A stretch of DNA of 33,013 nt from positions 1 through 33,013 of the forward strand of contig CANREP010000022.1 in NCBI GenBank assembly GCA_947629685.1, given 5' to 3'. Every line of letters starts with the position of its first letter. Within the stretch, counting starts at the first letter, position 1. Under the pieces are notes generated by a model, which worked only from the letters and a program-made list of their open reading frames with translations, searched no databases and was not told the DNA's origin. Below are positions 4,342-33,013 of the stretch, piece after piece. Source of the DNA: an uncultured Phascolarctobacterium sp. (GTDB taxonomy: Bacteria > Bacillota > Negativicutes > Acidaminococcales > Acidaminococcaceae). The translations under genes and the position numbers were made by a program.

Positions 4342-4342
4342 C

Positions 4343-6440: not shown

Positions 6441-6441
6441 T

Positions 6442-7398: not shown

Positions 7399-7410
7399 AG
7401 CTATCTCCTT

Positions 7411-7440
7411 AACCGTTTATCTCAAGCAAGATAAACGGTT
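7411..7440. promoter_or_regulatory. 30-bp perfect palindrome abutting the moaA ribosome-binding site
   Basis: The 12-base arms AACCGTTTATCT and AGATAAACGGTT flank a 6-base centre. The right end of the element on the minus strand touches AAGGAG of moaA. A TTTACA / GATAAA pair with 18-base spacing overlaps it, so it could be an operator over a promoter or an RNA hairpin. It has no T-run of its own. The geometry resembles ModE sites (two AT-rich half-sites around a short centre), and a ModE-like gene ends this operon. Confidence 0.6.
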
Positions 7441-7444
7441 GTAA

Positions 7445-7476
7445 AAAACAAATGTGGTATTACCCACATTTGTTTT
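7445..7476 (-). terminator. Rho-independent terminator after the hydroxylase Mo subunit
   Basis: Arms AAAACAAATGTGG and CCACATTTGTTTT form a 13-bp stem with a 6-nt loop. On the minus strand the 3' arm runs into TTTTTT. It begins 9 nt after the stop codon of the molybdenum-subunit gene, so moaA probably needs readthrough or its own promoter. Confidence 0.85.
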
Positions 7477-7485
7477 CTGATTTTT

Positions 7486-9771: not shown

Positions 9772-10244
9772 AAGCTTACTCCCCGCTTTTTATCTTTCTT
9801 CCAGGCCAGGAAATTTAAAATACCGCGCAGCTGACCTTCATAGCCGGAGCAGCGGCACAGATTCCCTGCCAGATATTCCTTGATTTCTTCTTCGCCGGGT
9901 TCAGGATTTTCTCTGAACAAAGCCAGCGCGTTCATAATAAAGCCCGGATTGCAGAACCCGCATTGCTCCGCACCCTGGTCGGCAATAAAAGCGCCGAACT
10001 CAGCAGCTTCCTCCTGCAGCCCTTCCAGCGTCGTTACCTGCTGTCCGTCAGCACGCGCAGCCAATAGCGAGCAGGACAGTACGGGCTTATCATTTAAAAA
10101 TACCGTGCACAAACCGCAGTTGGAAGTTTCACAGCCGCGTTTCACGCTGAAACAACCTTCTTTGCGCACAAAATCAATGAGCAAAAGATCAGGCTCTATC
10201 TCTCTTGTTATTTTCTTACCGTTCAAAACTATATTTATCAGCAT
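9768..10244 (-). CDS. Hydroxylase 2Fe-2S subunit
   Basis: 158 residues, typical of CoxS/XdhC-type small subunits. The N-terminal plant-type ferredoxin cluster uses C38, C43, C46 and C58. The C-terminal cluster uses C95, C98, C130 and C132 (CGFC and CRC). The loop reads RGCETSNCGLC, with Ser where the family usually has Gly. It passes electrons from the Mo site to the FAD subunit. The gene overlaps the FAD gene by 7 bp and the Mo gene by 4 bp, implying coupled translation and fixed stoichiometry. Confidence 0.95.
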   Translation of the reverse strand: MLINIVLNGKKITREIEPDLLLIDFVRKEGCFSVKRGCETSNCGLCTVFLNDKPVLSCSLLAARADGQQVTTLEGLQEEAAEFGAFIADQGAEQCGFCNPGFIMNALALFRENPEPGEEEIKEYLAGNLCRCSGYEGQLRGILNFLAWKKDKKRGVSL

Positions 10245-11035
10245 CCTGCCTTACCTCCAGCTTCCAGCACTGTTCTCTGCGCCAGTACCTTAATCAGATG
10301 CGTGCGGTACTGCGCGCTGCCTCGGTTAGTATTGCCGGTAGGGATAACCTGCGCCGCATATTCGGCAAAGGCTTGAGCGCCTGCTGCCGTTACAGGCAGA
10401 CCTGCCAGCTGCTGCCTGTCTATCAGCAGCATAGCCTTGCCAGGGCGCGCGCCTACGGCGATACGTACATCCTTATCAGTTACAGCAGCCGCACAGGTCA
10501 GCACAGGAAAATCCGTCTTAGATATCCTTACGGTCTGATAACTGAAAGATGCCTTATTTTTTTTAATAATAATTCTAACCAGTATATCTCTGTCATAGGG
10601 CATATTTACAAATTCTGCCAGAGGGATAATGCCGCCTTTATACATTTCCACATAAGCATCCATCACCATCAGGACGGAAATAACGTCAGAAAAGCCGAAG
10701 CGCCCGTATACGCTGCCGCCGACAGTGGCCAGATTGCGGAACTGTACCCCAACGATATGGCGCATCGCTTCTTTTACCGCGCCGCCGGAATAGGCAGCAA
10801 GCCCCGGATGCTCTTCCAGCTGCCGCAACGTCGCCATACAGCCGATACGGAATTCTGTCTCAGTTTCTTCAATCTTATCCAAGCCGAGGCCGGACAGATC
10901 TATTACCGTGCCTACGTTACCCTTGGTCATCTTGACCCACAGCATCCCGCCGATAACACGGTTCATACGCTTCTGATTCAGCTCCCAAGCTTCCTCCAGG
11001 GTAGCTGCTTTCTTATATTCCCGAATAGTAATCAT
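10238..11035 (-). CDS. Hydroxylase FAD-binding subunit
   Basis: 265 residues, a little shorter than CoxM/XdhB proteins (about 290). RNLATVGGSVYGRFGFSDV at 100-118 is the FAD-binding motif of the family. The first flavin loop is divergent (VIGGMLWVKMTKG at 27-39 instead of the usual GGTDL-type). The C-terminus VPTGNTNRGSAQYR-like segment matches the CO dehydrogenase flavoprotein C-terminal domain. It is the first gene of the hydroxylase operon, with GGAGG before the ATG and an extended -10 promoter about 45 bp upstream. Comparable to YgfM in the E. coli xanthine dehydrogenase-like cluster. Confidence 0.9.
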   Translation of the reverse strand: MITIREYKKAATLEEAWELNQKRMNRVIGGMLWVKMTKGNVGTVIDLSGLGLDKIEETETEFRIGCMATLRQLEEHPGLAAYSGGAVKEAMRHIVGVQFRNLATVGGSVYGRFGFSDVISVLMVMDAYVEMYKGGIIPLAEFVNMPYDRDILVRIIIKKNKASFSYQTVRISKTDFPVLTCAAAVTDKDVRIAVGARPGKAMLLIDRQQLAGLPVTAAGAQAFAEYAAQVIPTGNTNRGSAQYRTHLIKVLAQRTVLEAGGKAGC

Positions 11036-11079
11036 ATTAGCCCTCCTGCTCCAGGGTATTTCATCTCATAGTCTATTTT

Positions 11080-11088
11080 ATTTTACCA
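11080..11088 (-). promoter_or_regulatory. Extended -10 promoter of the hydroxylase operon
   Basis: Minus-strand TGG-TAAAAT has the TGn extension. The -35 region (TGTAAA, 17 bases upstream) is poor. The predicted leader is about 35 nt and includes GGAGG. Confidence 0.5.
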
Positions 11089-11132
11089 TATGCAAGAATA
11101 TTTTTACAGCAAATAATTTTGTGCAGATAGTA

Positions 11133-11161
11133 TTGAATAGCCGCCCGCCTGATTATACAAT
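11133..11161 (+). promoter_or_regulatory. Promoter of the mocA-like gene
   Basis: TTGAAT and TACAAT are separated by exactly 17 bases. The leader would be about 30 nt. It is divergent from the hydroxylase promoter in the same 162-bp gap, so one regulator could control both. Confidence 0.65.
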
Positions 11162-11197
11162 AAAAACAAACATATTTTGCTTACAAGGGAGAATAAT

Positions 11198-11833
11198 ATG
11201 ACAAACAATCCCGCTTCCAACCAGCAAACACTGCTGCCTGTAGCCTGCATCATCATGGCCTCCGGCTCTTCCTGGCGTTTCGGCAGCAATAAGCTGCTGG
11301 CCTCTTTTCAAGGCCGCCCGTTAATAGAAAACATCCTGCTGACAACTGCCAAAATTCCTTTTGCATCCCGTCTTGCCGTGACCCGTTCTCCTGAGGCGGC
11401 AGCTGTCTGCAATAAGCTGCGTGTTCCTGTCCTACTGCACTCCGAGCCAGGTCAGAATGACACCGTACGCCTGGCACTGAGCGAACTGAAACGCACGCAG
11501 GCGGCAGGTTACCTGTTCTGCGTAGCCGACCAGCCTTTAATCAGCGCAGCCTCACTGCTTAGACTGTGTCGGGCGTTTACGGCTGCGCCGCAATATATTT
11601 ATCGTACTGTATATAAAGATATTCCGGGCAACCCTATACTGTTTCCAACCGCTTTAACAGCCGAACTGATGCAGCTGCCGCAGGATAAAGGCGGCTCCTA
11701 CCTGCTAAAAAAATATCCTGAACGGGTACGATATGTTCCCGTCCAGGATGCTTACGAACTTTATGATGTTGATACGCAGGAAGATCTGCAGCATTTAGAG
11801 CTGCTGCTTACCTCTCCGGCAGGACAATATTGA
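11198..11833 (+). CDS. MocA-like molybdenum cofactor cytidylyltransferase (NTP transferase family)
   Basis: 211 residues. CIIMASGSSWRFGSNKLLA at about 17-35 is the nucleotide-binding loop of the MobA-like NTP transferase fold, in the variant used by MocA/YgfJ proteins. FCVADQPLIS (about 107-116) is the metal-binding DxP motif and GNPILFP follows. MocA joins CMP to molybdopterin to make the MCD form used by xanthine oxidase-family enzymes. That fits this hydroxylase, and YgfJ sits in the corresponding E. coli cluster. The start ATG has AAGGGAG upstream; an in-frame TTG at 11177 is unlikely. Its 3' end overlaps the convergent permease gene by 26 bp. It is the only plus-strand gene in the SDMH locus. 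Confidence 0.88.
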   Translation: MTNNPASNQQTLLPVACIIMASGSSWRFGSNKLLASFQGRPLIENILLTTAKIPFASRLAVTRSPEAAAVCNKLRVPVLLHSEPGQNDTVRLALSELKRTQAAGYLFCVADQPLISAASLLRLCRAFTAAPQYIYRTVYKDIPGNPILFPTALTAELMQLPQDKGGSYLLKKYPERVRYVPVQDAYELYDVDTQEDLQHLELLLTSPAGQY

Positions 11834-13199
11834 GCAATATAGCCACAATCGCCGCCGGCACGATGCCGGAGCCGCCAAAAATAAGCTGCACTAACTGCGG
11901 CGTATGCGTCAGAATACCGGGATTAGCGCCAATACCGTAACCCACGCCAAGAGCCACTGAAACGATGCTGAGACTTCTGCCGTTCAGCGGCTCTTTTGTT
12001 ATGAGCATAATACCGCTGATAACGATGGAGGAAAACATCATAACAGCTGCGCCGCCCAGTACTGACTGGGGCATGATGGAAACCAGCGCGCCCAGCTTCG
12101 GAATCAGGCCGCATAAAATCAGGAAAGCCGCGCCTGTCGCCAGGGCAAAACGGTTGACAACCTTCGTCATGGCAACAAGTCCTACGTTCTGACTGAAAGA
12201 AGTATTAGGCAGTACGCCTAACAGCGCCGCAAAGGAAGAACCTATACCATCACAGATAACGCCGCCGGACAGTTCCCTGTCAGTAGCTTCGCGTCCCATA
12301 CCTCCTTCGGTAACGCCGGAAATATCGCCGACCGTCTCTACTGCAGTAACAATAAACATAATGGCAACCGGCAGGATAGCGCGCATATCAAAAACTATAT
12401 CTACCGGCAGCAGTTCAGGTACGGCAAACCAGCCCGCTTCTGCCACTTTGTGCCAGTTCAGCACCCAGGCCTTGGTATATTCCACGCCGTTGGCGTCTAC
12501 AGCTGTCGTAGGCAGCACCAGACCCATAACAAAAGCTGCGATATAACCGGCAATAATGCCGCATAAAATAGAAGAATAGCTGACAAAGCCTTTAGTTCCA
12601 TGCTTAAAGAACAAAATAACAGCCAACACGAAAGATGCCAGCAGCATATTTTCCATGGAGCCGAAATCTTTGGCGCCGAAACCGCCCCCAAAAGAATTGA
12701 TACCGACAGCAATCAGCGACAAGCCGATAGACAAAACTACCGTACCTGTAACGACAGCCGGAAAGAAGCGTCTCAACGGCTTCAGGAAAAATCCCAGCAC
12801 GCCTTCAAACAGACCGCCGACAATCGACGCGCCCATCATAGCGCCATAAGCGGTAACACCGCTGCCCATAGTCGCGGCGACACCGTTAAACACACCGATA
12901 AAGCCGGAACTGGTACCCATGATGATCGGCACCTTGCCTCCGCATGGCCCAATCGCATACAGCTGTACCAACGTGACAAGCCCTGCAATAATCATAGCAT
13001 TCTGCAGCAGGCTGATCTGCAAATCAGCCAAATCGCTGCCGCCGACAATACCGCAGGCGCCGGTAATAATCAGCAGCGGCGTCAGGTTACCGACAAACAT
13101 GGCCAAGACATGCTGCAAGCCTAAAGGAATTGCCCGCAGCAGCGGCATTTCTGCTTCAAACTGATAGGCTGCATCCAAAAAATCTTGTTTTTCTTTCAT
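11808..13199 (-). CDS. NCS2-family xanthine/uracil/urate permease
   Basis: 463 residues with about 12-14 hydrophobic segments. Family signatures are VQLYAIGPCGGKVPIIMGTSSGFIG-type early helices, ETVGDISGVTEGG (conserved Glu of the substrate site) and QNVGLVAMTKV, the NCS2 motif with Lys after Thr. It is a proton- or ion-coupled importer in the cytoplasmic membrane. Position among hydroxylase maturation genes favours a purine such as xanthine or urate over uracil, in parallel with the urate permease of the E. coli xdhD region. It has its own promoter in the gap after xdhC. The C-terminal codons overlap the convergent mocA-like gene. Confidence 0.92.
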   Translation of the reverse strand: MKEKQDFLDAAYQFEAEMPLLRAIPLGLQHVLAMFVGNLTPLLIITGACGIVGGSDLADLQISLLQNAMIIAGLVTLVQLYAIGPCGGKVPIIMGTSSGFIGVFNGVAATMGSGVTAYGAMMGASIVGGLFEGVLGFFLKPLRRFFPAVVTGTVVLSIGLSLIAVGINSFGGGFGAKDFGSMENMLLASFVLAVILFFKHGTKGFVSYSSILCGIIAGYIAAFVMGLVLPTTAVDANGVEYTKAWVLNWHKVAEAGWFAVPELLPVDIVFDMRAILPVAIMFIVTAVETVGDISGVTEGGMGREATDRELSGGVICDGIGSSFAALLGVLPNTSFSQNVGLVAMTKVVNRFALATGAAFLILCGLIPKLGALVSIMPQSVLGGAAVMMFSSIVISGIMLITKEPLNGRSLSIVSVALGVGYGIGANPGILTHTPQLVQLIFGGSGIVPAAIVAILLNIVLPER

Positions 13200-13237
13200 T
13201 CAACATCCCTCTGTGCTCTAAAATTTTTTACCTTTTT

Positions 13238-13266
13238 ATTTTAATGAATACAGCTAAAATTGTAAA
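13238..13266 (-). promoter_or_regulatory. Promoter of the purine permease gene
   Basis: Minus-strand TTTACA and TAAAAT with an exact 17-base spacer lie about 40 bp before the permease ATG, within the 71-bp gap after xdhC. No terminator separates xdhC from it, so the permease may be transcribed from both. Confidence 0.7.
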
Positions 13267-13270
13267 GATT

Positions 13271-14242
13271 TTACCCCTTGCCATATCTTTGCGCCCTTTC
13301 CTGAATCAGCTGGGCAGCAATGCTTACGGCAATTTCTGCCGGTGTCTCGCTGCCGATAGAAAGACCGATAGGCGTGATAATCCTGTCTAATTGCTGCTTG
13401 CTGTAACCTTCGGCAAGCAATCTTTCACGGGTCAGCTGCGCTTTTTTACGACTGCCCACCACGCCGATATAGCCCGCATCAGTACGCAGCAGGAAGCGTT
13501 CTACGTCCGCATCATGCAGATGTCCGCGTGTCATTACCGCCGCATAATCGCTCTGCCGCAGGCTAAGGCGTTCTGCCAGCTGTTTAAAATCAAGCTGCAG
13601 TACTTCTGCCGCTCCAGGAAAAAGTTCCGTCCTGCTGAATTCTTCCCGGTCATCAATGACCACACAGGTAAAATCAAGATGAGCTAAAAGCGGCACGACC
13701 TCCTGCGCCAGATGACCGCCGCCAAAGATATATACTTTACCGTCATAGGCAAACTGTTCCGCATAATAAGTCTGCCCATCCATCTCAACCAGACCGGTCC
13801 GGCCCAGCATATCAAGCTGACCGGCAACTGCAAGCGGCCCGGCAGCAAAAGGCAGAAGCAGCCAGTAAGGCTTCTTCCTTTTTGCAGCGGCTGCAGCCTG
13901 CGCCACAGATTGGCGCACCGCCTCATTTTCTGCCTGCAGATAACAAAACAGCACTTGGCAGCTGCCGCCGCAGATCATGCCCAGATTGGCAACACGCTCC
14001 GCCGTCAGTACATACTCAAACAAAAAATTTTCCCGCTGCGCCAGCTGCTGCTGTCCCTTTAAAATTGCCTGGTATTCCAGATTGCCGCCGCCAATGGTCC
14101 CATAAATACGCCCCTGTTCTCCTACCAGCATATAAGCGCCGGCACTGCGCGGCGTAGAGCCGCTGCTTGCGATAACGGTAGCCAACAGACAATCGTGCCC
14201 TGCTGCCAACGTCTGCGTCAATGTTTCCAACAGCTTTAACAT
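13271..14242 (-). CDS. xdhC: XdhC/CoxI-family hydroxylase maturation protein
   Basis: 323 residues. The N-terminal XdhC/CoxI domain has ATVIASSGSTPRSAGAYML (about 21-39) and GTIGGGNLEYQA (about 48-59), plus CGGSC with C91 and C95. The C-terminal Rossmann domain starts FGGGHLAQEVVP at about 173, then VIDDREEFSR, VMTRGHLHD and GVVGSRKK. In characterised systems XdhC binds molybdenum cofactor, promotes sulfuration of the Mo centre and inserts it into the hydroxylase. In this setting it may instead help install selenium; that is inference. It overlaps yqeB by 7 bp and has GGAG upstream. Confidence 0.93.
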   Translation of the reverse strand: MLKLLETLTQTLAAGHDCLLATVIASSGSTPRSAGAYMLVGEQGRIYGTIGGGNLEYQAILKGQQQLAQRENFLFEYVLTAERVANLGMICGGSCQVLFCYLQAENEAVRQSVAQAAAAAKRKKPYWLLLPFAAGPLAVAGQLDMLGRTGLVEMDGQTYYAEQFAYDGKVYIFGGGHLAQEVVPLLAHLDFTCVVIDDREEFSRTELFPGAAEVLQLDFKQLAERLSLRQSDYAAVMTRGHLHDADVERFLLRTDAGYIGVVGSRKKAQLTRERLLAEGYSKQQLDRIITPIGLSIGSETPAEIAVSIAAQLIQERAQRYGKG

Positions 14243-15060
14243 TTTGCATTCTCCAAAGCATAACGGCAGACAAGCTCCAGTACGCTGCCGGCAATGCAGC
14301 GCGCCTTATCGGAAATTGTGAAGCAGTTAGCCAGTTCCTCGCGGCGCGGGTCGATATCGGCTATTTTAAAGCCTTCGGTAACCTGGTAGCCTTCGCGGAT
14401 CATGCCGCGGATGATACCGGGTATTGTCGCAGTAACGGGAATCCTGCCGCCATCAACGACTATCTCGGCAATGACCTCTCCCTGCTCAACGATTTCGCCA
14501 ATGCCGCGTGCCACATGTATCACCCCCGCTACCTGCGCGTGCAGTACACGTTCTGCCGTATAACCGCCGATATTGCCCGGTACGCCGCTGTTAGGAGCAG
14601 CGCTGCCGCTTCTGATAATACGCCCAAGATTATGTCCGCGCTTAGTTTCTACTATGCAGTCCACATCCTCACCGGCAGTAAAGCCAGGCCCCAGCGCTAT
14701 AACCAATGGGGCCATTTTTTTGTGCGTGCCCAGATTTTTCTTGGCAATAATCGCATCGATTACGATATCCGGCTTAAAAGCTTCCAAGCAGCTTCCCGTT
14801 GCATCTACCAGCAGCGGCACCTTGCCCTGCTCCCAGACGCTTTCTGCATCCTGCCAGTCGTTTACCAAAAGACACTCCATGCCTTCCACCACGGCTTTTC
14901 CTTCATAAACGGCTTCACATACGGCAACTTGTCTGCGGATAGCGGCCGGCGCATCGCATTCCAGTACCAGCACTTTAAAACCAGCTCCCCACAACCGATG
15001 GATCGTGCCGGTGGCAAGGTCGCCGCCGCCGCGCACAATTATCCTGCATTCCTTTTGCAT
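14236..15060 (-). CDS. yqeB: EF2563/YqeB-family selenium-dependent molybdenum hydroxylase system protein
   Basis: 274 residues. The N-terminus RIIVRGGGDLATGTIHRLWGAGFKVLVLE looks like a Rossmann-type binding loop. HNLGRIIRSGSAAPNSGVPGNIGGYTAERVLHA in the middle and IGEIVEQGEVIAEIV (a swivelling, biotinyl-like segment) near the end are typical of the family. The family is defined by co-occurrence with SDMH enzymes; its biochemical role is not established. It lies between DUF3343 and xdhC with short spacings, so it is co-expressed with the selenium and Mo maturation genes. Start follows GGAG. Confidence 0.9.
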   Translation of the reverse strand: MQKECRIIVRGGGDLATGTIHRLWGAGFKVLVLECDAPAAIRRQVAVCEAVYEGKAVVEGMECLLVNDWQDAESVWEQGKVPLLVDATGSCLEAFKPDIVIDAIIAKKNLGTHKKMAPLVIALGPGFTAGEDVDCIVETKRGHNLGRIIRSGSAAPNSGVPGNIGGYTAERVLHAQVAGVIHVARGIGEIVEQGEVIAEIVVDGGRIPVTATIPGIIRGMIREGYQVTEGFKIADIDPRREELANCFTISDKARCIAGSVLELVCRYALENAKC

Positions 15061-15078
15061 CTTCTCACTCCGTTCCCG

Positions 15079-15315
15079 CTACATCATTATTTCTCTGCAC
15101 TCTTCTACAGCAAAGCTCCACTGGCTGCGCTGCCGCTCCAAAAGGGCAAAATCCTCCGGCAGCATCCGCCAGGCCAGGCCGCAGCCAGCAGAAATCTCCT
15201 GCGGCACCGGTATCAGTCTGCCACCGATATCATGCTCTAAGCAGAATTTTTCTGCCGCCATGGCCTCGGTCGTCGTGGCAAAAGTTATAATCATATACAG
15301 TCTTTTCAATCGCAT
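15079..15315 (-). CDS. DUF3343 small protein, putative sulfur/selenium carrier
   Basis: 78 residues from the ATG at 15315. An upstream in-frame start at 15342 would overlap the preceding gene more deeply. The core reads YMIITFATTTEAMAAEKFC, then GGRLIPVPQEISAGCGLAW, with C25 and C45. The SAGCGLAW cysteine is the hallmark of the family. The protein looks like a compact alpha/beta carrier similar in size to TusA. The gene sits directly downstream of the cysteine-desulfurase-like gene and upstream of yqeB, which suggests it receives persulfide or perselenide. No function is proven to my knowledge. Confidence 0.8.
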   Translation of the reverse strand: MRLKRLYMIITFATTTEAMAAEKFCLEHDIGGRLIPVPQEISAGCGLAWRMLPEDFALLERQRSQWSFAVEECREIMM

Positions 15316-15319
15316 GTAT

Positions 15320-16477
15320 TTAATCCCTGTTTTCCTGCGCATACTGCAGGGCTATCTCTCTTACCGCCGTTACGGCTGCGTCGACTTCTGCTGCCGTATT
15401 AAAGCAGCCGAAACTGAAGCGCACCGCTCCCTGCTGCTCAGTACCGAAATGGCGATGCAGCAGCGGCGCACAGTGCGCGCCTGCACGCACGCAGATCTGA
15501 TAATCTTCCCACAAGATATCGCTCACGGCGCCGGAATCCAGCGTACCGATATTCAAAGAAACAATAGCGGCTCTTTCAGCCGCCTGATAATCTCCGTACA
15601 ATTTTACCTCAGGCAGCGCTTGCACCCCTTGGACAAAACGGCGCATAAGCATTTCTTCATGGGCGTGTATTTTCTCCACTCCCGTTGCCAGCAGAAAATC
15701 CAGCGCAGCATTCAGCCCCGCAATGCCATGTCCGTTCAGCGTTCCTGCTTCCAGCGCTGTAGGCATTTTATCTGGATGGGTAGTCAAAAAGCTATGCACC
15801 CCGCTGCCGCCTACCTTGAAAGGACGCGGCGCAAGACCAGGCCGCACATAAACGCCGCCCGTACCCTGAGGCCCCATAAGCCCCTTATGCCCAGTAAAGC
15901 ACAGGATATCGATACCCGTCTTAGTCACATCAACAGGCAGGCAGCCGGCAGTCTGAGAAGCATCGACGACCAGCAGCAACCCGTGCTGATGGGTAAAATC
16001 AGCTACTAAATCCAAATCGGTTACGTTACCAGTCAGATTGGAAGCATGAGTAATAACTACCGCTTTCGTCTGTGGACGCAGATTCTTTTCCAGGTCAGCA
16101 TAATCAATCCGACCTAAAGCATCAGCCTGCAGATGCGTCACTTCTACTCCGTTAGTTTTCGCCAAGTACAAGGGCCGCAGCACTGAGTTATGCTCGCACA
16201 CCGTCGTAAGCACATGGTCGCCCGGCGCAAACAATCTCTGCAGCACGCTGTTAAGCGCCTCCGTCGCGTTGCAGGTAAACGCAATACGCGACGGGTCAGC
16301 GGCTCCCAATAATTTTGCCAGTTTTACCCTGGTATCGTAAATCACCCGCGCCGCCTTTAAAGTTGGCTCATGAGCTCCCCTCCCGGCGTTGCCAAGCGAC
16401 TGCAGCGCCTCAAGAACAGCTTCCGCTACAGCAGGCGGTTTTTGCAGCGTCGTCGCCGCATTGTCAAAATAAATCAT
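15320..16477 (-). CDS. Cysteine desulfurase-family PLP enzyme (EF2568 type)
   Basis: 385 residues. N-terminus MIYFDNAATTLQKP is the class V aminotransferase start. H96, D172 (VDASQTAG) and the PLP-binding lysine K198 in FTGHKGLMGPQGTGG are intact. The persulfide-forming cysteine is C336 in RAGAHCAPLLH, the SufS-like short-loop arrangement. The enzyme would release sulfur from cysteine or selenium from selenocysteine. Its place between yedF and DUF3343 and near selD suggests it feeds selenium to SelD or to the hydroxylase. It overlaps yedF by ATGA. Confidence 0.92.
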   Translation of the reverse strand: MIYFDNAATTLQKPPAVAEAVLEALQSLGNAGRGAHEPTLKAARVIYDTRVKLAKLLGAADPSRIAFTCNATEALNSVLQRLFAPGDHVLTTVCEHNSVLRPLYLAKTNGVEVTHLQADALGRIDYADLEKNLRPQTKAVVITHASNLTGNVTDLDLVADFTHQHGLLLVVDASQTAGCLPVDVTKTGIDILCFTGHKGLMGPQGTGGVYVRPGLAPRPFKVGGSGVHSFLTTHPDKMPTALEAGTLNGHGIAGLNAALDFLLATGVEKIHAHEEMLMRRFVQGVQALPEVKLYGDYQAAERAAIVSLNIGTLDSGAVSDILWEDYQICVRAGAHCAPLLHRHFGTEQQGAVRFSFGCFNTAAEVDAAVTAVREIALQYAQENRD

Positions 16478-17085
16478 GGCCGGATAACCGCAGATGCCTG
16501 CAGCATTTTTTCAGTAATTACGTACATATTGGTTACAGAGCCGACCTGCAGCTTTTCGGTTAAACCGTAATGATTCAGGCAGGTACCACAAGTCAGGATT
16601 TCCACGCCCTGGGCTTCCAGCGACTTAAAATCCTCCAGCGCCGGCGAATCCTCGCAAGTCAGCTTAGCGCCGCCGTTATACAGCAAAATTGTTTTTGGCA
16701 GTTCGTCCTGCTGGGTCAGCGCAAAAATAAAGCCTTTCATCAAAAGAGCACCCAATACATCGTCGCCGCTGCCCATTTTATCCGAAGAGATAACAACAAC
16801 CTTATTTTTCCTGCTGTCTGGAATGCACAGCTCCGGCACTTCCACGGCTTCCGATTCCTCAGCTGCTGCACCGACAGTCAAAAGCACCTGATATTTTCTA
16901 TCTTCCAGCTTCTCACTCTTTACGCCGTAGCCTTTCTGATTAGCCATCTTGGTCAAATTCTGCACGGCGATTTCATTATCGACCAGCACGCACACCTGAC
17001 CGCTGCCGTTCAGCTCCTTAATCGCATTTTTTGTTTTCACTACAGGAATCGGACACGCATCTCCCAAAGCATTGACTTGCAGCAT
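16474..17085 (-). CDS. yedF: YedF-family sulfurtransferase-like selenium metabolism protein
   Basis: 203 residues, two domains. Residues 1-75 are a TusA-like domain with the CPxP motif (C11-P-I-P14) that carries persulfide or perselenide in this fold. Residues about 90-200 are a DsrE/F-like domain with ILLYNGGAKLTCEDSPALED and EILTCGTCLNHYGL; the paired cysteines in TCGTC could be redox active. The fusion is characteristic of selenium metabolism loci. It probably relays selenium between the desulfurase and SelD; this is inference from family and position. ATG follows AAAGGAGAG. Confidence 0.92.
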   Translation of the reverse strand: MLQVNALGDACPIPVVKTKNAIKELNGSGQVCVLVDNEIAVQNLTKMANQKGYGVKSEKLEDRKYQVLLTVGAAAEESEAVEVPELCIPDSRKNKVVVISSDKMGSGDDVLGALLMKGFIFALTQQDELPKTILLYNGGAKLTCEDSPALEDFKSLEAQGVEILTCGTCLNHYGLTEKLQVGSVTNMYVITEKMLQASAVIRP

Positions 17086-17100
17086 CTTTCTCTCTCCTTT

Positions 17101-18129
17101 TTACAGTACATATATTTCTTTTTCTCGCTGTTCAACAATCTCGCCTACGATTGCAGCAGGCATTCCCGCCTGGCGCAGTTCCTGCAGCGCTGCCTCGGCG
17201 CACTCCGGCGCTACCGCTGCCAGCAGCCCGCCGGAAGTCTGCGGGTCAAACAGCACTTCTTCCATAGCAAAGGGTATATTTTCAAACTGAACAAATTTTT
17301 CCGTATGGTTCCTGTTGCGCTGCGCTGCCGCCGTCAGTAAAAATTCGTCGGCATAGGCCAGCGCCGCCTCTATCACCGGCACCTGCCCGGACTGGACGAG
17401 ACAGGAAAGCCTGCCGTCCATCATCTCATGCAAATGCCCTAAGAAACTGAAACCGGTTACGTCTGTGCAGGCGTGAACTGTATATTTGCGCAGGATTTCT
17501 GCGGCATATTTATTAAGTTTAGTCATGGATGCGATAGCTTCCGCCATGGCTTCAGCAGAAGCTTCGCCGACCCGGTTAGCCGTACAGATAATACCCACGC
17601 CCAGCTTCTTAGTCAGAATCAGCTTATCACCTGGCTGACCGCTGTTGTTGGTATATATCCGGCGCGGGTCGATAAGTCCCATCACCGAAAGTCCGTACTT
17701 GACGTCACTGTCAGCAATGGAATGCCCGCCAGCCAGCGTACCGCCTGCTTCCATAACCTTGTCCGCGCCGCCGCGCATAATCTCGCCCAAAATATTGAGA
17801 TCCATAGCTTCCGGGAAACAAACGATATTGAGCGCTGTCCTGACCTCGCCGCCCATAGCATAAATATCGCTTAAAGCATTAGCTGCAGCTATCTGTCCAA
17901 AGATATAAGGATCATCGACCATGGGCGGAAAAAAATCCAGCGTCTGAACTACGGCCAGGTCGTCAGCCACTTTATAAACAGCCGCGTCATCCTTGCTGTC
18001 ATAACCTACTAACAGAGCCGGATCTGCGGGTCCTTTCGGCAGTTTTTCGAGAATATGGCTCAAAATTCCGGCTCCTAATTTCGCCGTACAGCCGCCTTTA
18101 CAAAAGACTATTTTTTCTTGTTCACTCAC
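17101..18129 (-). CDS. selD: Selenide, water dikinase (selenophosphate synthase)
   Basis: 342 residues, full length. The N-terminal catalytic pair is C14 and K17 in GGCTAK; the cysteine is encoded by TGT, so this is the Cys form and not a selenoprotein. ATP/metal-binding segments include [60 protein letters not shown] and DPQTSGGLL. It makes selenophosphate from selenide and ATP. The GTG start lies within the end of yqeC, with GGAG nine bases upstream. selA, selB, the Sec tRNA and the selenouridine synthase gene are absent from the window, so its product may serve the molybdenum hydroxylase. Confidence 0.96.
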
Positions 18130-18829
18130 TCTGCCACGCTCCTCTCACCCAGATATCCTCTTTCTTTATCCCATGCTGCCGCAGCAGCGCGCATATCTCA
18201 GCAGCCCTTGCTGCCGCAGCAGCTGTGTCGCATTTATTAAAGACAGGATAAAATTTTCTCCCGTCAACATCCTTCCTGAGACCAAGTTCGGAAGTCATAA
18301 TATACGCCAAATCCTCCGCCGTCAGTAAATGGCTGCCATCGCAGCCAAGCAGCTTCTGCACCAGTTCCGCCCGCAAACAGGCTTGCTCTACAGTCTGACC
18401 CAGCGCGTCAAGTCCTAAAACGCCGATTACAATATCGCACTGGGGCAAAAGCACTGGCTCATGCGCAGCCGGAACCTTACAGGGCCTGCCTTTAGCGCCG
18501 TCCGCTTCCAGCAAAGTAATATCCGCTAACTGCATATACTTTGCCAATACGTTAGGCTCCGGCATCCGCAGTTTTCCAGCATCTTCCGCCTGTCTGCCGC
18601 AGACGGCGTAGCTGCCGCGCTGCCACAAAGACTGCAGCTGCTGCAAATTTGCTGCGTAGACAGCTTTCGGCGGCTTATAAATATGTGTCGTCGTAGCTAT
18701 CAATACCCTTTTGCCTTTACTGCTCAGATACTCAGCCAGCTCGTACATTATCGTCGTCTTGCCGCCGGCGCCGACGATGGCTGCCACGTGTTTAGCGCCA
18801 TCCAGCAAGTTCCATACTTTTATCTGCAT
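18122..18829 (-). CDS. yqeC: YqeC-family putative selenium-dependent hydroxylase accessory protein
   Basis: 235 residues. The N-terminal P-loop is GAGGKTT at 20-26, followed by [53 protein letters not shown] in the middle and PVFNKCD near residue 200 are typical. The family is a P-loop NTPase known only by its tie to SDMH loci. NTP-dependent insertion of selenium or cofactor is a reasonable hypothesis but unproven. The gene begins 11 bp after the FAH-family gene and overlaps selD by 8 bp. The Shine-Dalgarno site is weak, so translation may depend on coupling. Confidence 0.9.
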
Positions 18830-18840
18830 CTTCTGCCTGG

Positions 18841-19749
18841 TTATTTTACCGTATTTTCCAGCCTGCCGATTTTTTCAATCTCACAGACCACGGTATCGCC
18901 GCTGTGCAGGAATGTAGGCGGCTGCATTCCCATTCCGACTCCTGCCGGCGTGCCTGTGGCGATAATCGTACCTGCCTGCAGCGTCATCCCTTGCGACAGC
19001 TCGGCAATAGCGCCGGCTACCGTCTGCATCATATATTTTGTATTGCTGGACTGGCGCAGCTGTCCGTTAACATAACAGCTGATATCAAGATCCTGCACGT
19101 CTTCAATCTCATCGGCAGTAACGATGCAGGGGCCCATAGGCGTAAAACCGTCCAGGCTCTTACCGCGATACCACTGTTTATGCCTGGTCTGCAGGTTTCT
19201 CGCGCTGACATCATTGATAACCGTATAGCCGAAGACATATTCTTCAGCCTGCTCTTTGCTCACATCTTTAGCGTCTTTACCCAAAATAACGCCTAATTCC
19301 GCTTCATAGTCCAGACTGTCTACTAATCCCTCATAAGCAGGAATAAAATCGCCAGACCCAGTTGCCATGCTCACGCGCTTGGAAAAATAAATCGTATAGG
19401 GGCGTTCTCCGCCAAAGGCTTCATCAGAAAACCTGCCTGCTTCCTGCGCATGAGCGTCATAATTGATGCCCAGGCAGATAACATCCTGCCGCGGGTGCAC
19501 AATAGGAGCGCACAGCTTTACGTCAGCAAGCGCTACCAGCGCTCCCTGCAGAGCGTCAGTATTTTTTCCCAAGAGCTGTAACTGCGCCATTTCTTCTTTT
19601 CCCCAAGCGCATATCAGCTCGTTCATATCCCGGTATGCCAGCCTGCCGCTCAGCTTCTGCAGCATATTCAGCCTGTAGGCTGCTCCGTCATCGGCAAAGG
19701 CTACAAGGATTTCCTGTATTCCGTTGATTTCTGCCGTATAAAATTTCAT
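18841..19749 (-). CDS. Fumarylacetoacetate hydrolase (FAH)-family protein
   Basis: 302 residues. The C-terminal FAH domain begins near residue 75 (VICLGINYDAHAQEAG), with the metal ligands in LDYEAELGVILGK (two glutamates) and a conserved Asp later. GYTVINDVSARNLQ, KSLDGFTPMGP and IIATGTPAGVG complete the family pattern. Members include fumarylpyruvate and acylpyruvate hydrolases, oxaloacetate decarboxylase and so-called ureidoglycolate lyases, and sequence alone does not choose among them. It heads the selenium gene block, with GGGGGA before the ATG, and may act on the hydroxylase product or a downstream carboxylic acid. This link is only contextual. Confidence 0.88.
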   Translation of the reverse strand: MKFYTAEINGIQEILVAFADDGAAYRLNMLQKLSGRLAYRDMNELICAWGKEEMAQLQLLGKNTDALQGALVALADVKLCAPIVHPRQDVICLGINYDAHAQEAGRFSDEAFGGERPYTIYFSKRVSMATGSGDFIPAYEGLVDSLDYEAELGVILGKDAKDVSKEQAEEYVFGYTVINDVSARNLQTRHKQWYRGKSLDGFTPMGPCIVTADEIEDVQDLDISCYVNGQLRQSSNTKYMMQTVAGAIAELSQGMTLQAGTIIATGTPAGVGMGMQPPTFLHSGDTVVCEIEKIGRLENTVK

Positions 19750-23403: not shown

Positions 23404-25233
23404 TTAAACTTCCACTACGATTTCATCTTCATCGGCACTTTTTGCAGTATTATTATAATCTGATAAATCATACAAATTATAACGATTGCCAAAGACAACA
23501 TAAGGAGTGTAAGTTAAATCATAATAATCTACTGCATCTTCACCCAGCAAGAAGCGTAAATAATTTTCCCCGCTGAAACGTTGATTGTACACGTAATTAT
23601 ATTCGGTAAGTCTCAACAAAACGCCATTACTTTCCTGAACATTTTCTTGCCCAGTAAACCTCAGATACATCCATTGGCCATTATTTTGCTCATTCCGCCA
23701 AGCATCAAGATTGCCTTTAGGATTGTTCTTAGCAGTATTATACCAGAAAATACTGTCACTGTCATCACGCAACGGAGAATTACCATATACCGAAGTAGAC
23801 ATTGCATTATTACTGAAATATGCCACATCTTCTACAGCAAGTTTATCAAACCACAACTGTCCGTTATCAATATGGATATCAGCATTATTCACCCACAGAT
23901 AATCAAAGCGTAATCCACTGCCATTACTAACAGAAATATCGCCTATATTCAAATTATCTATTGGCTCATCATCAGCAACACTATCAAGAGTAACGATGAG
24001 TAAACCATCAGCATCAGGACGCTGAGAAATATGATCCAAAGAAATATCGTCATCTTTCACAATAATATGTGACCCGGCAATCAGTTCATCAACAGCAAGA
24101 ACTTTTTCTTTGGTACGCAGTTGAATAGCTACTAACTCTCCATTGATCTTATGCAGCCTCAAATCACCATCAGCTACATCTACTCTGGCATCATTAGTCG
24201 CATACAGATCGTACAAATCAAGGTCGCCTATGCCTTGAAGTTTAATATTGATATTGCCTTTATCTTTATTACCGTCAGGAGACAACGCAGTCAGCGTATT
24301 ATCTCTATTATCGGCATCTCTTAAATTACCACTACCAGTAATAGTAATGTTAATGTTACCACCACTACCTTGTGGATCTGCTGCAGTCGGGTTATAACCG
24401 CTCTGTATATTGCCACCTAAAATGACATCGCCCGTATGTACATTAAGGTTTACATCTTCATCAGAAGCAAGATTATTCCCAGTAATAATACTACCAATGT
24501 TAGTAATAAAGTTGATATTTGTACCATTTACTTCAGATTTTTCTGTTGTTGTAATATCACCTTGTCCACCAATATTCGCTTCTACATTGCCAGCAGCACT
24601 GACATTTCCGATAAATTGAATATTGCCGTCACCCATTACCGTTGCAGAAACATTCTGAGTTTCAGATTCAGTCGTACCATTAACCGTAATATCGCCATTT
24701 ACACTGGTCAAAATTACATCTTGCTTACCACTGATTGTTCCACTGGTACTAATATTACCTTTTCCAGATTTTACATCAATGTAACCTTGTTCAGCGTCTA
24801 CGCTGCCATTAAGTTCGATATCGCCTTCTGCTGTTTTAATCCCTACATCAGTTCCTGCTGTAACTTGTTTAACAATACTAATTTTGCCGCTGCCACTGTT
24901 AATGTCTACAGCGCCTTCCTCGGCATTTACTTTTTCTTTAAGCTCGATATCGCCTTTCCCAGTAGCTATGTTCACATTTGTGTTACCGCTAATATCTGCA
25001 TTTGCAATAATATTACCTTCATCTGTGCTCACTGCTACATCGCCGGCATTGGCATCTACGCTGCCATTAAGTTCGATATCGCCTTCTGCTGTTTTAATCC
25101 CTACATCAGTTCCTGCTGTAACTTGTTCAACAATACTAATTTTGCCGCTGCCACTGTCAATGTCTACAGCGCCTTTCTCGGCATTTACTTTTTCTTTAAG
25201 CTCGATATCGCCTTTCCCAGTAGCTATGTTCAC
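23404..25233 (-). CDS. 5'-truncated filamentous adhesin (hemagglutinin/LktA-like exoprotein fragment)
   Basis: Up to 609 residues in frame from a GTG that has no Shine-Dalgarno site; the frame stays open only nine codons more before a stop. Residues 1-200 are beta-helix-like repeats (GDIELKEKVNAE, GKISIV, GIKTAEGDIELNGSVDA) as in filamentous hemagglutinins. Residues about 200-350 continue with GNINITITGSGNL-type strands. Residues about 350-609 form a distinct C-terminal domain (GDLRLHKINGE, ADIHIDNGQLWFDKL, DAWRNEQNNGQWMYLRF, ENYLRFLLGEDAVDYYDLTYTP) like the end of LktA-family adhesins. No signal peptide or secretion domain remains. It is most likely the 3' part of a much larger surface-protein gene; see the junction at 25239. 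Confidence 0.7.
   Translation of the reverse strand: MNIATGKGDIELKEKVNAEKGAVDIDSGSGKISIVEQVTAGTDVGIKTAEGDIELNGSVDANAGDVAVSTDEGNIIANADISGNTNVNIATGKGDIELKEKVNAEEGAVDINSGSGKISIVKQVTAGTDVGIKTAEGDIELNGSVDAEQGYIDVKSGKGNISTSGTISGKQDVILTSVNGDITVNGTTESETQNVSATVMGDGNIQFIGNVSAAGNVEANIGGQGDITTTEKSEVNGTNINFITNIGSIITGNNLASDEDVNLNVHTGDVILGGNIQSGYNPTAADPQGSGGNINITITGSGNLRDADNRDNTLTALSPDGNKDKGNINIKLQGIGDLDLYDLYATNDARVDVADGDLRLHKINGELVAIQLRTKEKVLAVDELIAGSHIIVKDDDISLDHISQRPDADGLLIVTLDSVADDEPIDNLNIGDISVSNGSGLRFDYLWVNNADIHIDNGQLWFDKLAVEDVAYFSNNAMSTSVYGNSPLRDDSDSIFWYNTAKNNPKGNLDAWRNEQNNGQWMYLRFTGQENVQESNGVLLRLTEYNYVYNQRFSGENYLRFLLGEDAVDYYDLTYTPYVVFGNRYNLYDLSDYNNTAKSADEDEIVVEV
24797..24981 (-). repeat. 185-bp internal repeat of the adhesin, copy 2
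   Basis: Nearly identical to copy 1 at 25055-25239, offset exactly 258 bp (86 codons), with three base differences that change three residues (K/E, D/N, E/K). The remaining part of the 258-bp unit differs between copies. Confidence 0.9.
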
Positions 25234-29934: not shown

Positions 29935-29963
29935 AAAATAAGAGCCTCAAAGGCTCTTATTTT
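29935..29963 (-). terminator. Terminator overlapping the response regulator stop codon
   Basis: A 13-bp stem pairs AAAATAAGAGCCT with AGGCTCTTATTTT around a 3-nt loop, and a T-run follows on the minus strand. The TAA stop of the response regulator gene (29957-29959) lies within the stem. Confidence 0.85.
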
Positions 29964-30544
29964 CTATATTTTTCGTCTGCGGCTATTATTTCCTCGGCCA
30001 GTTTTTTCAAAGTAATGCGTTTCGCCATACTGAACTGCTGCATCTTTCTGTAAGCTTCCTGCTCCGTCATCTGATGCGCAGTCATCAGGATGCCTTTGGC
30101 CCTGTCAACCAGCTTTCTGGTTGCAAGGCTTTCTTTGAGTTCTTCAAGTTCGCGTCCCAGCTCCTGCCAGGCACGAAAACGGCTTACAGCCACTTCGACA
30201 GCCGGAAAAAGCTGCTGCTCGCGCACCGGCTTAACCAGATAGGCGATAACGCCTGCTTCCGTAGCTCTTGCCACAATATCCTGCTGGCTGTAAGCCGTAA
30301 GCAAAAGTACCGGGGCTATTTCCGCCGCCGTTATCTGCTGGGATGCTGTCAGCCCGTCCATGACAGGCATTTTGACATCCATAATCACGATGTCAGGACG
30401 CAGCTCCTGCGCCAACCGTACTGCCTCCTGTCCGTCCGCAGCCTCGCCGACTATCTCATGACCGGCCTCTGTAAGCATCTCGCGCAGATCCAGGCGGATC
30501 AGCGCCTCGTCATCAGCCAGTATGATTCTCAACTTTTGCATCAT
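29957..30544 (-). CDS. ANTAR-domain response regulator (transcription antiterminator)
   Basis: 195 residues. The receiver domain (about 5-120) has the acidic pair D11-D12, phospho-acceptor D56 in IMDVKMP and the conserved Lys in YLVKPV. A coiled linker (RELEELKESLATRK) leads to a C-terminal ANTAR domain (about 140-190: LVDRAKGILMTAHQMTEQEAYRKMQQFSM), an RNA-binding module of the AmiR/NasR/EutV type. Such proteins bind paired RNA hairpins and prevent termination. It overlaps the kinase gene by ATGA, so the two form a signalling pair. Target RNAs are not identifiable here. Confidence 0.94.
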   Translation of the reverse strand: MMQKLRIILADDEALIRLDLREMLTEAGHEIVGEAADGQEAVRLAQELRPDIVIMDVKMPVMDGLTASQQITAAEIAPVLLLTAYSQQDIVARATEAGVIAYLVKPVREQQLFPAVEVAVSRFRAWQELGRELEELKESLATRKLVDRAKGILMTAHQMTEQEAYRKMQQFSMAKRITLKKLAEEIIAADEKYRK

Positions 30545-31917
30545 TTTTCTCCACCGCCTTTAGGAATAATTACCGAAGCCAATACGCCGCCTTCTGCCAG
30601 CGGTGTCAGTGAAAAACTGCCTTTTAAATCGGCCTCTGCCATAGTCTTGATGATTTTAAGGCCCAAACTGCCGCTCTGCTGCCAGGAAAAATCAGACGGC
30701 AGCCCTACACCGTTATCGGCAATCAAAAGCTCATAGCAGCTGCCGCTGTCATTAAAACGCACCGTCAGCCTGCCGCTCTGCCTGCCTGCAAAAGCGTGCT
30801 CTATAGCGTTTTGCAGCAGTTCGTTTAAAATCAGCGCGATACTGGTCGCCTTTTCTGACGGCAGCATCACATCATCTGTGGCAAAATCTGTTTCCAAGAC
30901 AAAATCAGAATTCAGCATACTGCTGACAAGAGCCTGATAAATACTTTTGGCTACCTTTCCCACATCGATCATACCGTCGCCCTGCTGAGAAAGATATTCA
31001 TGTACTACGGCAATGCTGTTGACCCTGCCGATACAGTCCTGCAAAATACTTTTTGCTTCGCCGCTCACGGTACGCCGTTCCTGCAGCCGCAGCAGGCTGA
31101 CAATCGTCTGCAGATTGTTCTTTACCCGGTGATGAATTTCTTTGATGACCGCCGATTTTATCAGCAGCTCTTCATCTTTTTTGTGCAGCTCGGTGATATC
31201 CTGCAAAATGACGACGGCGCAACTGCTTTTCGGACGCGCCGGTACAGGCAGTACCTTCATCAAAAGCAGCCTGCCATGCATGAAGAACTGCTTACTTTCA
31301 GCGATGCCGGTGTCGATGACCATGCCTACCAGCGGCCAGTTGATAGCCAGATCGTTGGTTCTGCGCCCCAGTACATCCGCTACATGCAGCACCTGGAAGA
31401 TATGCCGCGCCTTATTATTGACCGCGATAATCACCTTATTGGCGTCCACCACCATCAGTCCGTCTTCTGGCGACAGCCTTTCATACTGCCGCCCGCTGCC
31501 TCCCGACAAATTCAGCAGGAAATCCAGCGCCGTGCGCAGCATGGTTTCATCCGGGTCGTCCGTATCAAAGCTGAGCGCTCCGAAGCATTTACCGTAGCCG
31601 TCCCTGAGCGGGAAAACACGAAAACTGCTGAAAATTCCCAGCTTCCATTCTCTTTTACCGCTTACAGCAACATTCTGCTGCATGGCGCGCGCTACCAGCG
31701 GTTCCTCCAGGCAGCGCACTCTCTGGCTCGTCATATCGGCTCCAGCTTCCCCCAGCAGCGTCAGCGGTCTGACCTGCTTGTAGATGTTAAAAAATTTTCT
31801 GTCACCGTCCGGCAGGAAAACGGTCAGTTTAGCTCTCGCCATATCGGCTGCCAGTCCCAATGCCGGCAGCATATTCTGTAAAATATTTTTCTGTTCTGCC
31901 GTCAAATTGTTCAGCAT
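30541..31917 (-). CDS. HisKA_2-family sensor histidine kinase (PdtaS/EutW-like)
   Basis: 458 residues with no membrane segment, so cytoplasmic. Residues about 5-140 match the GAF-like N-terminal sensor domain of the family. About 148-245 is a PAS domain (DGLMVVDANKVIIAVNNKARHIFQ). The HisKA_2 helix is EIHHRVKNNLQTIVSLLRLQ, with H262 the likely phospho-site. The HATPase domain has LNELLQNAIEHAF and DNGVGLP. It passes phosphate to the ANTAR regulator. The signal is unknown. Start ATG follows GAGGGG. Its upstream region holds the DnaA-box cluster. Confidence 0.94.
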   Translation of the reverse strand: MLNNLTAEQKNILQNMLPALGLAADMARAKLTVFLPDGDRKFFNIYKQVRPLTLLGEAGADMTSQRVRCLEEPLVARAMQQNVAVSGKREWKLGIFSSFRVFPLRDGYGKCFGALSFDTDDPDETMLRTALDFLLNLSGGSGRQYERLSPEDGLMVVDANKVIIAVNNKARHIFQVLHVADVLGRRTNDLAINWPLVGMVIDTGIAESKQFFMHGRLLLMKVLPVPARPKSSCAVVILQDITELHKKDEELLIKSAVIKEIHHRVKNNLQTIVSLLRLQERRTVSGEAKSILQDCIGRVNSIAVVHEYLSQQGDGMIDVGKVAKSIYQALVSSMLNSDFVLETDFATDDVMLPSEKATSIALILNELLQNAIEHAFAGRQSGRLTVRFNDSGSCYELLIADNGVGLPSDFSWQQSGSLGLKIIKTMAEADLKGSFSLTPLAEGGVLASVIIPKGGGEK

Positions 31918-31944
31918 GTTTACCCCTCATTCAGACACAATGTT

Positions 31945-32071
31945 TTTTCCACATCCTGCCGTAAAATAATCCACAGTTACTAAGCCTTATACACATTCTT
32001 ATCCACAGCATAAACGGCATATTTATGTGATTTTCTATTTTTTATCCACATTATCCACAGCCTTATGCACA
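31945..32071 (+). promoter_or_regulatory. Cluster of seven DnaA boxes
   Basis: All read on the plus strand: TTTTCCACA (31945-31953), TAATCCACA (31967-31975), TTATACACA (31987-31995), TTATCCACA (31999-32007), TTATCCACA (32042-32050), TTATCCACA (32051-32059) and TTATGCACA (32063-32071). Three are the perfect consensus, two fit TTATNCACA and two have one mismatch. Two are directly abutting. A 34-bp AT-rich stretch separates the two groups. They fill the gap between tsaD and the kinase gene. Confidence 0.85.
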
Positions 32072-32085
32072 AAATGTACTTTTGT

Positions 32086-33013
32086 TTAACCAAGTTTCAA
32101 AGATGGAACAGCGTTTAAGTCCAGTGGACTGCTCATACCTGCCTGGAACATAAAATACCCGCGGCAGGCAATCATGACTGCATTGTCTGTACACAGGATC
32201 GGCGTCGGATGCACCAGACGGGCGCCAACAGCGCTGACAGCGCGAGCTAATTCTGTCTGCAGCGTTTTATTGGCGGATACGCCGCCGGCCAGCACGATTT
32301 CTTTCAAGCCTGTATCCTGCAGCGCCTGTACCGCTTTCTGTACCAGCGCATTAACTACTGCCTGCTGGAAAGACGCTGCCACATCGGCATAATTGATGTC
32401 TGCGCCGCGCTGTTTCTGAGTATGCAGATAATTGATCACCGCCGACTTCAAGCCGCTGAAACTAAACTCATAGGGAGCGTCCAGCCTGGCTACAGGAAAT
32501 TCGACAGCCTGCGGGTCGCCGTTTAAAGCCAGTTTTTCTATTTCCGGCCCGCCCGGATAAGGCAGTCCCATAACGCGGGCAATTTTGTCGAAAGCTTCAC
32601 CGGCAGCATCGTCGCGGGTCTGCCCTAACAGCTCGAAGCTGTTATAGCCGGTTACTTTCAGCAGCGCCGTATGTCCGCCGCTGACTACTAAGGCCATAAA
32701 AGGCGGCTCCAGTTCAGCATCGGACAAAAAATTAGCGAAAACGTGTCCTTCCAGATGGTTGACGCCGATTAAAGGTTTATCCGCAGCCCAGGCCAGCGAT
32801 TTGGCCGCAGACAAACCAACCAGCAGCGCCCCGACCAGTCCCGGTCCGTAGGTAACGGCTACAGCATCGATATCCGCCAAAGTCTTATCCGCCTGGCGCA
32901 GCGCTTCATCAATAACCGGCATGATATTTTCAATATGCTTGCGGGACGCTATTTCCGGCACTACTCCGCCGAATTTACGGTGCACTACGATCTGTGAGGA
33001 AATAATATTGCTC
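32086..33013 (-). CDS. tsaD: tRNA N6-adenosine threonylcarbamoyltransferase (partial, N-terminus beyond window)
   Basis: About 308 residues of the C-terminal part; the full protein is about 340. The frame continues to the window edge as SNIISSQIV ahead of HRKFGGVVPEIASRKH, so the GTG at 32985 is internal. The metal-binding HLEGH, AVTYGPGLVGALLVG, VSGGHTALL, AGEAFDKIARVMGLPYPGGPEIE and FSFSGLKSAV motifs, and GGVSANKTL, are all conserved. With TsaB and TsaE it transfers threonylcarbamoyl to A37 of tRNAs that read ANN codons. No clear terminator follows; the DnaA-box cluster begins 15 bp after the stop codon. Confidence 0.97.
   Translation of the reverse strand, partial: SNIISSQIVVHRKFGGVVPEIASRKHIENIMPVIDEALRQADKTLADIDAVAVTYGPGLVGALLVGLSAAKSLAWAADKPLIGVNHLEGHVFANFLSDAELEPPFMALVVSGGHTALLKVTGYNSFELLGQTRDDAAGEAFDKIARVMGLPYPGGPEIEKLALNGDPQAVEFPVARLDAPYEFSFSGLKSAVINYLHTQKQRGADINYADVAASFQQAVVNALVQKAVQALQDTGLKEIVLAGGVSANKTLQTELARAVSAVGARLVHPTPILCTDNAVMIACRGYFMFQAGMSSPLDLNAVPSLKLG

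What the first reader, a model, noticed from the sequence alone, without database searches (positions are those of the whole stretch)
31945..32071. Seven co-oriented DnaA boxes in 127 bp next to tsaD
The gap between tsaD and the sensor kinase gene holds seven TTATCCACA-like 9-mers in one orientation, three of them perfect and two tandem. This density is what is expected of an origin or a DnaA-titration cluster, not of chance. As I recall, one of the oriC-proximal DnaA-box clusters of Bacillus subtilis lies beside gcp (the tsaD homologue), with groES-groEL a few kb away. The same neighbourhood here would mean the position of the cluster is conserved across distant Firmicutes. The boxes also sit in the promoter region of the kinase-ANTAR operon, so DnaA could tie that operon to replication.
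Basis: partly seen in the sequence, partly recalled or inferred. Interest (0 to 1): 0.8.

Follow-up and report, generated by a model that had tools for sequence, protein, structure and literature searches.

The report
Conserved DnaA-box array after tsaD
Just after the tRNA-modification gene tsaD this bacterium carries seven binding sites for DnaA, the protein that starts chromosome copying, and the same ordered array sits at the same place across the Bacillota, including close relatives of Bacillus subtilis, where DnaA is known to bind it, so it looks like an ancient control site for replication timing rather than an accident.

Summary
In detail: seven co-oriented DnaA boxes (five exact TTATNCACA, two with one mismatch) fill the 168-bp gap between tsaD and a PdtaS-type kinase gene. 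Shuffles of the gap give at most three. It is not oriC, because dnaA and dnaN lie on another contig. The array is conserved. A congener keeps all 63 box bases while 30 of 105 spacer bases changed. Across Bacillota, 188 of 285 tsaD loci have at least three boxes in this orientation within 400 bp of the tsaD stop; control regions give 4 of 278. Spacings recur (9, 12, 21, then 42-44 and 52-54 bp). Downstream genes vary (kinase, radical SAM, lgt, 5-FCL, ABC-F), so the array is tied to tsaD, not to the kinase. In Bacillaceae it is the gcp-ydiF region, one of the strongest DnaA-binding regions of B. subtilis and ATP-DnaA-preferring. Best reading: an orthologous extra-oriC DnaA-box cluster that sequesters ATP-DnaA and tempers initiation. 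Binding is very likely; the role in timing is inferred from B. subtilis. The kind is known; I found no report of its phylum-wide conservation and spacing, nor of a second recurrent array after comFC (24 genomes).

The parts
31945..31953 (+). DnaA box 1, TTTTCCACA (one mismatch)
   Evidence: identical in congener G001
31967..31975 (+). DnaA box 2, TAATCCACA (one mismatch)
   Evidence: identical in G001
31987..31995 (+). DnaA box 3, TTATACACA (exact TTATNCACA)
31999..32007 (+). DnaA box 4, TTATCCACA
32042..32050 (+). DnaA box 5, TTATCCACA, first of the abutting pair
32051..32059 (+). DnaA box 6, TTATCCACA, second of the abutting pair
32063..32071 (+). DnaA box 7, TTATGCACA; with boxes 5 and 6 the recurrent 9-12 spaced triple
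31918..32085 (.). 168-bp gap that holds the whole array
   Evidence: 7 boxes against shuffle mean 0.52, maximum 3
32086..33012 (-). tsaD (gcp), cut by the contig end; its 3' end is the anchor of the array
   Evidence: Pfam TsaD 5.6e-98
30541..31917 (-). PdtaS-type histidine kinase gene; the array lies 28-154 bp upstream of its start
   Evidence: Pfam HisKA_2, GAF_PdtaS
29957..30544 (-). ANTAR response regulator gene, partner of the kinase
   Evidence: Pfam Response_reg, ANTAR

Best explanation
This is an extra-oriC DnaA-box cluster, positionally orthologous to the gcp (tsaD) cluster of Bacillus subtilis, and part of an ancestral Bacillota element anchored at the 3' end of tsaD. Proposed working: DnaA binds the strong TTATCCACA boxes, including the abutting pair. 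It spreads cooperatively onto co-oriented, partly weaker boxes at fixed spacings (9, 12 and 21 bp, then about 42-54 bp), giving an array that prefers ATP-DnaA. The array holds ATP-DnaA away from oriC, and its capacity doubles when the fork copies tsaD, so it damps early or repeated initiation. Shown here: sequence, orientation, spacing, positional conservation, selection on the boxes, and independence from the downstream gene. Shown by others in B. subtilis: DnaA binding at gcp-ydiF, ATP preference, and early initiation when six clusters are deleted together. Inferred: binding in this organism, and that this one cluster affects timing.
For: Density far above chance. 0/63 box bases against 30/105 spacer bases changed in a congener. 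Antisense arrays after tsaD in 24/63 Negativicutes, 69/114 other Bacillota, 21/30 genomes of the class of G047 and 74/78 named Bacillaceae; control stretch 4/278. Spacing peaks at 9, 12, 21. 65 of 147 tandem 18-mers in 119 genomes lie after tsaD, 63 of them in the same orientation. Independence from the downstream gene. B. subtilis binding and ATP preference (PMC4447404); six-cluster deletion (PMC5295017; PMC13220808). DnaA of this genome has the GGRDHTTVIHA recognition motif.
Against: No binding data for this organism. In B. [quoted passage not shown] About a third of the Bacillota loci and 39/63 Negativicutes lack the array at tsaD, so it is dispensable.
Confidence: 0.72

Rival explanations
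1. Transcriptional control: DnaA bound here regulates the kinase-ANTAR operon, or blocks read-through from tsaD, linking that operon to replication status.
For: The array lies 28-154 bp upstream of the kinase start, and tsaD-kinase adjacency is common in Negativicutes. DnaA is a known transcription factor in B. subtilis (PMC4447404).
Against: Arrays occur before unrelated or convergent downstream genes and without the kinase. Many Negativicutes have the kinase there without an array. The only sigma-70-like hit in the region is at chance level.
Confidence: 0.15
2. A datA-like or DARS-like catalytic site: the array assembles DnaA in a geometry that changes its nucleotide state, rather than only holding it.
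For: Fixed spacings and a conserved weak third box, and strong ATP-DnaA preference at the B. subtilis counterpart, fit a specific complex rather than a loose sink.
Against: No accessory-protein site was sought. B. subtilis is reported to lack IHF, Hda and datA (PMC13220808). No biochemical evidence.
Confidence: 0.1
3. The array is a replication origin or part of one.
For: Box density is origin-like.
Against: dnaA-dnaN lies on contig C25 with its own boxes on both sides. No GC-skew switch in the window, though only one side of the array is visible. In complete genomes with the array, tsaD lies 0.20-0.78 of an arm from dnaA.
Confidence: 0.02

Closest known systems
B. subtilis extra-oriC DnaA-box cluster at gcp-ydiF (one of the strongest DnaA-binding regions in PMC4447404)
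   Same: Same place (after gcp/tsaD), same box, several boxes within about 200 bp, shared 9-bp and about 43-bp spacings, and most boxes antisense to tsaD
   Different: B. subtilis relatives also have one to three opposite boxes near the gcp stop and a convergent ABC-F gene; here all seven boxes are co-oriented and the next gene is a co-directional kinase gene
E. coli datA and DARS
   Same: Non-coding DnaA-box loci away from oriC that modulate initiation, conserved in sequence and relative position among E. coli strains (PMC4585315)
   Different: Other genes, other spacing; datA works with IHF; no catalytic activity shown for the Bacillota arrays
oriC (dnaA-dnaN) box clusters
   Same: Same 9-mer, dense boxes
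   Different: Not beside dnaA or dnaN; all boxes in one orientation

Membership tests
B. subtilis-type extra-oriC DnaA-box cluster (gcp cluster) | Several DnaA boxes within a few hundred bp, above chance | tested here: met
B. subtilis-type extra-oriC DnaA-box cluster (gcp cluster) | Lies outside oriC, after gcp/tsaD | tested here: met
   dnaA on C25; tsaD adjacent; same place in B. spizizenii and 74/78 Bacillaceae
B. subtilis-type extra-oriC DnaA-box cluster (gcp cluster) | Bound by DnaA, with ATP-DnaA preference | not testable with these tools
   Known only for B. subtilis
B. subtilis-type extra-oriC DnaA-box cluster (gcp cluster) | Loss, together with other clusters, causes early initiation | not testable with these tools
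   Known only for B. subtilis
oriC | Adjacent to dnaA-dnaN | tested here: not met
oriC | GC-skew switch | tested here: inconclusive
   Negative throughout, but the contig ends 1 kb past the array
datA / DARS | IHF (or Fis) site and catalytic effect on the DnaA nucleotide state | not tested
   No accessory-site search made; the effect needs biochemistry

The most novel reading that the evidence does not exclude
The tsaD-3' array is an ancestral Bacillota replication-control locus with a fixed box grammar that builds a defined ATP-DnaA complex and actively lowers initiator activity, functionally like E. coli datA, and it works with a second array after comFC, often on the other chromosome arm.
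Probability: 0.22. Interest if true: 0.9.

Novelty: new member of a known kind. Interest (0 to 1): 0.72.

Why it matters
The extra-oriC DnaA-box clusters of B. subtilis are usually treated as a set of weak, redundant sinks in one species. Finding the gcp cluster at the same place, in the same orientation and with recurring spacings from Bacilli to Negativicutes, and under selection between congeners, says that this site has long been worth keeping. It gives a concrete locus and a box grammar with which to test how Bacillota, whose model species lacks datA and Hda, restrain DnaA. The ATP-DnaA preference seen in B. subtilis could be mapped onto particular spacings and the conserved weak box.

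Tried and rejected
Origin: rejected, dnaA is elsewhere. Kinase-operon regulation as the main role: rejected as the conserved function, because array and kinase dissociate both ways and promoter hits are at chance level. Polar fork barrier: not favoured. Boxes keep their orientation to tsaD in G062, where tsaD is head-on to the fork, and at comFC the boxes run the other way relative to the gene. Chance in AT-rich gaps: rejected by shuffles and by the plus-strand and 600-1010 bp controls. Origin-proximity as a condition for the array: a trend only (Mann-Whitney P 0.03, not corrected for relatedness; Negativicutes alone P 0.10), not claimed. A locus id cannot be a search centre, so Bacilli beyond the named loci were sampled through G047, whose class name is inferred from its ABC-F neighbour, not shown. 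Okumura 2012 is not held in the library.

Full report
WHAT IS THERE. The gap between tsaD (32086-33012, minus strand, cut by the contig end) and a PdtaS-type histidine kinase gene (30541-31917, minus strand) is 168 bp and holds seven DnaA boxes, all reading TTATNCACA on the plus strand. Five are exact (TTATCCACA three times, TTATACACA, TTATGCACA) and two have one mismatch. Start-to-start distances from the tsaD side are 12, 9, 43, 12, 20 and 22. In 3000 dinucleotide shuffles of the gap the mean is 0.52 and the maximum 3; Poisson P for seven in 127 bp is about 4e-14. The kinase is followed by an ANTAR response regulator and, from their translations, groES-groEL and guaA.

NOT THE ORIGIN. The genome (1.78 Mb, 44 contigs) has dnaA on contig C25, with boxes in the dnaA-dnaN gap and upstream of dnaA. 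GC skew is negative through the window with no switch, though the contig ends 1 kb past the array. Another dense cluster lies on C37 (see noticed items).

CLOSE CONSERVATION. The congener G001 has the same seven boxes at the same distances from the tsaD stop. Over the gap, 0 of 63 box bases differ and 30 of 105 spacer bases differ (Fisher P 1.4e-7). The two imperfect boxes are as frozen as the perfect ones, so selection acts on the boxes, weak ones included.

WIDE CONSERVATION. tsaD was located in relatives, in an even sample of 119 genomes of the phylum (about 80 families), in 60 Negativicutes, in 41 genomes of the class of G047, and in 80 named Bacillaceae loci; the stretch after tsaD was read. 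Loci with at least three same-orientation boxes within 400 bp of the stop: Negativicutes 24/63, other Bacillota 69/114, class of G047 21/30, Bacillaceae 74/78. The same criterion on the opposite strand gives 3/177, 3/30 and 9/78; in a control stretch 600-1010 bp downstream, either strand, 4/278. Per 50-bp bin in 133 genomes, antisense boxes number 107, 122, 96 and 47 in the first 200 bp and about 3 beyond 500 bp.

GRAMMAR. Distances between antisense boxes peak at 9 (85), 12 (67) and 21 (68), then 42-44, 52-54 and 63-66. Two forms recur: type A, box-9-box-12-box (39 genomes), whose third box is usually the degenerate TGTTRATAA; and type B, box-12-box-9-box (20 genomes, the window among them). 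In Bacillaceae the peaks are 31, 9, 22, 12, 40, 42/43 and 52.

GENOME-WIDE SPECIFICITY. The tandem 18-mer TTATCCACATTATCCACA with at most one mismatch occurs 147 times in 119 genomes (reversed-pattern control: 1). Sixty-five sites in 58 genomes lie within 5 kb after tsaD, 63 of them antisense to tsaD; of 69 exact copies, 34 lie there. Another 24 lie just after comFC, 23 of them in the orientation of comFC.

TIED TO tsaD, NOT TO THE KINASE. Homology groups among the genes after tsaD include, named by inspection of their translations, radical SAM (22), PdtaS kinase (21), lgt (17), 5-formyl-THF cyclo-ligase (15), murC (11), LCP, groES and convergent ABC-F, and the array occurs with most of them. 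In Negativicutes the array occurs without the kinase (G016, G019), and the kinase often occurs without the array. In G047 and G091 the array lies 2.7-3.2 kb away, past another gene and beside an ABC-F gene.

LINK TO EXPERIMENT. B. spizizenii, a named complete genome very close to B. subtilis, has the array between gcp and ydiF. In B. subtilis that region is among the strongest DnaA-binding regions in vitro: 10 boxes, apparent Kd 0.15 uM for ATP-DnaA against 0.33 for ADP-DnaA, and 16-fold more DNA recovered with ATP-DnaA than with ADP-DnaA at low concentration (PMC4447404). Removing six extra-oriC clusters causes early initiation, and one reinserted cluster partly restores timing (PMC5295017; PMC13220808). 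The original paper, Okumura 2012, is not held here; that the gcp cluster is one of those six is from memory. DnaA of this genome carries the GGRDHTTVIHA recognition motif.

MECHANISM. Most likely DnaA loads on the strong boxes and spreads to the neighbouring weak ones in the same orientation, holding ATP-DnaA away from oriC; passage of the fork through tsaD doubles the capacity. Binding here is very likely; the effect on timing is inferred from B. subtilis. In 30 complete or nearly complete genomes, arrays tend to go with origin-nearer tsaD (P 0.03, not corrected for relatedness); this is only a hint.

PRIOR KNOWLEDGE. No paper in the open library joins DnaA boxes with tsaD, and only PMC4447404 joins DnaA with gcp and ydiF; searched for the words, it does not discuss other species or phyla. 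Subscription papers were not searched, so a report of conservation within Bacillus may exist. The kind is known; the phylum-wide conservation, the spacing grammar and the comFC array appear new.

LIMITS. No other phylum was sampled. Boxes were called by one-mismatch match to TTATNCACA, which misses weaker sites. Genomes sharing families are not independent observations.

Noticed in passing
L154, L156, L157, L158, L159, L161 (about 1500-1610 in each); counts: A second recurrent DnaA-box array with the same 9-12 spacing lies 24-542 bp after comFC in 24 genomes, 23 of them in the orientation of comFC, often next to hpf. In several complete genomes it is on the opposite arm from tsaD.
   Followed up: partly
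L002 (contig C37) 2496-3003: The largest box cluster of this genome: about 16 exact or one-mismatch boxes in 500 bp, between an EamA transporter gene and a uxaE-like gene, not beside dnaA. Its role is unknown.
   Followed up: partly
type A rows: The third box of the type A triple is conserved as a non-consensus TGTTRATAA (TTATYAACA in box direction), as if a weak site were kept on purpose.
   Followed up: no
G038:C1:2139544: In G038 no array follows tsaD directly, but a tandem 18-mer lies about 20 kb further on; possibly a relocated array.
   Followed up: no
window 1851-19749: A run of genes read from their translations as molybdenum-cofactor, molybdate-transport, molybdenum-hydroxylase, selD and cysteine-desulfurase-like genes; looks like a selenium-dependent molybdenum hydroxylase cluster.
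   Followed up: no
window 23404-25233: An AT-richer ORF with long internal repeats (GDIELNGSVDA...), resembling a surface or haemagglutinin-like repeat protein.
   Followed up: no
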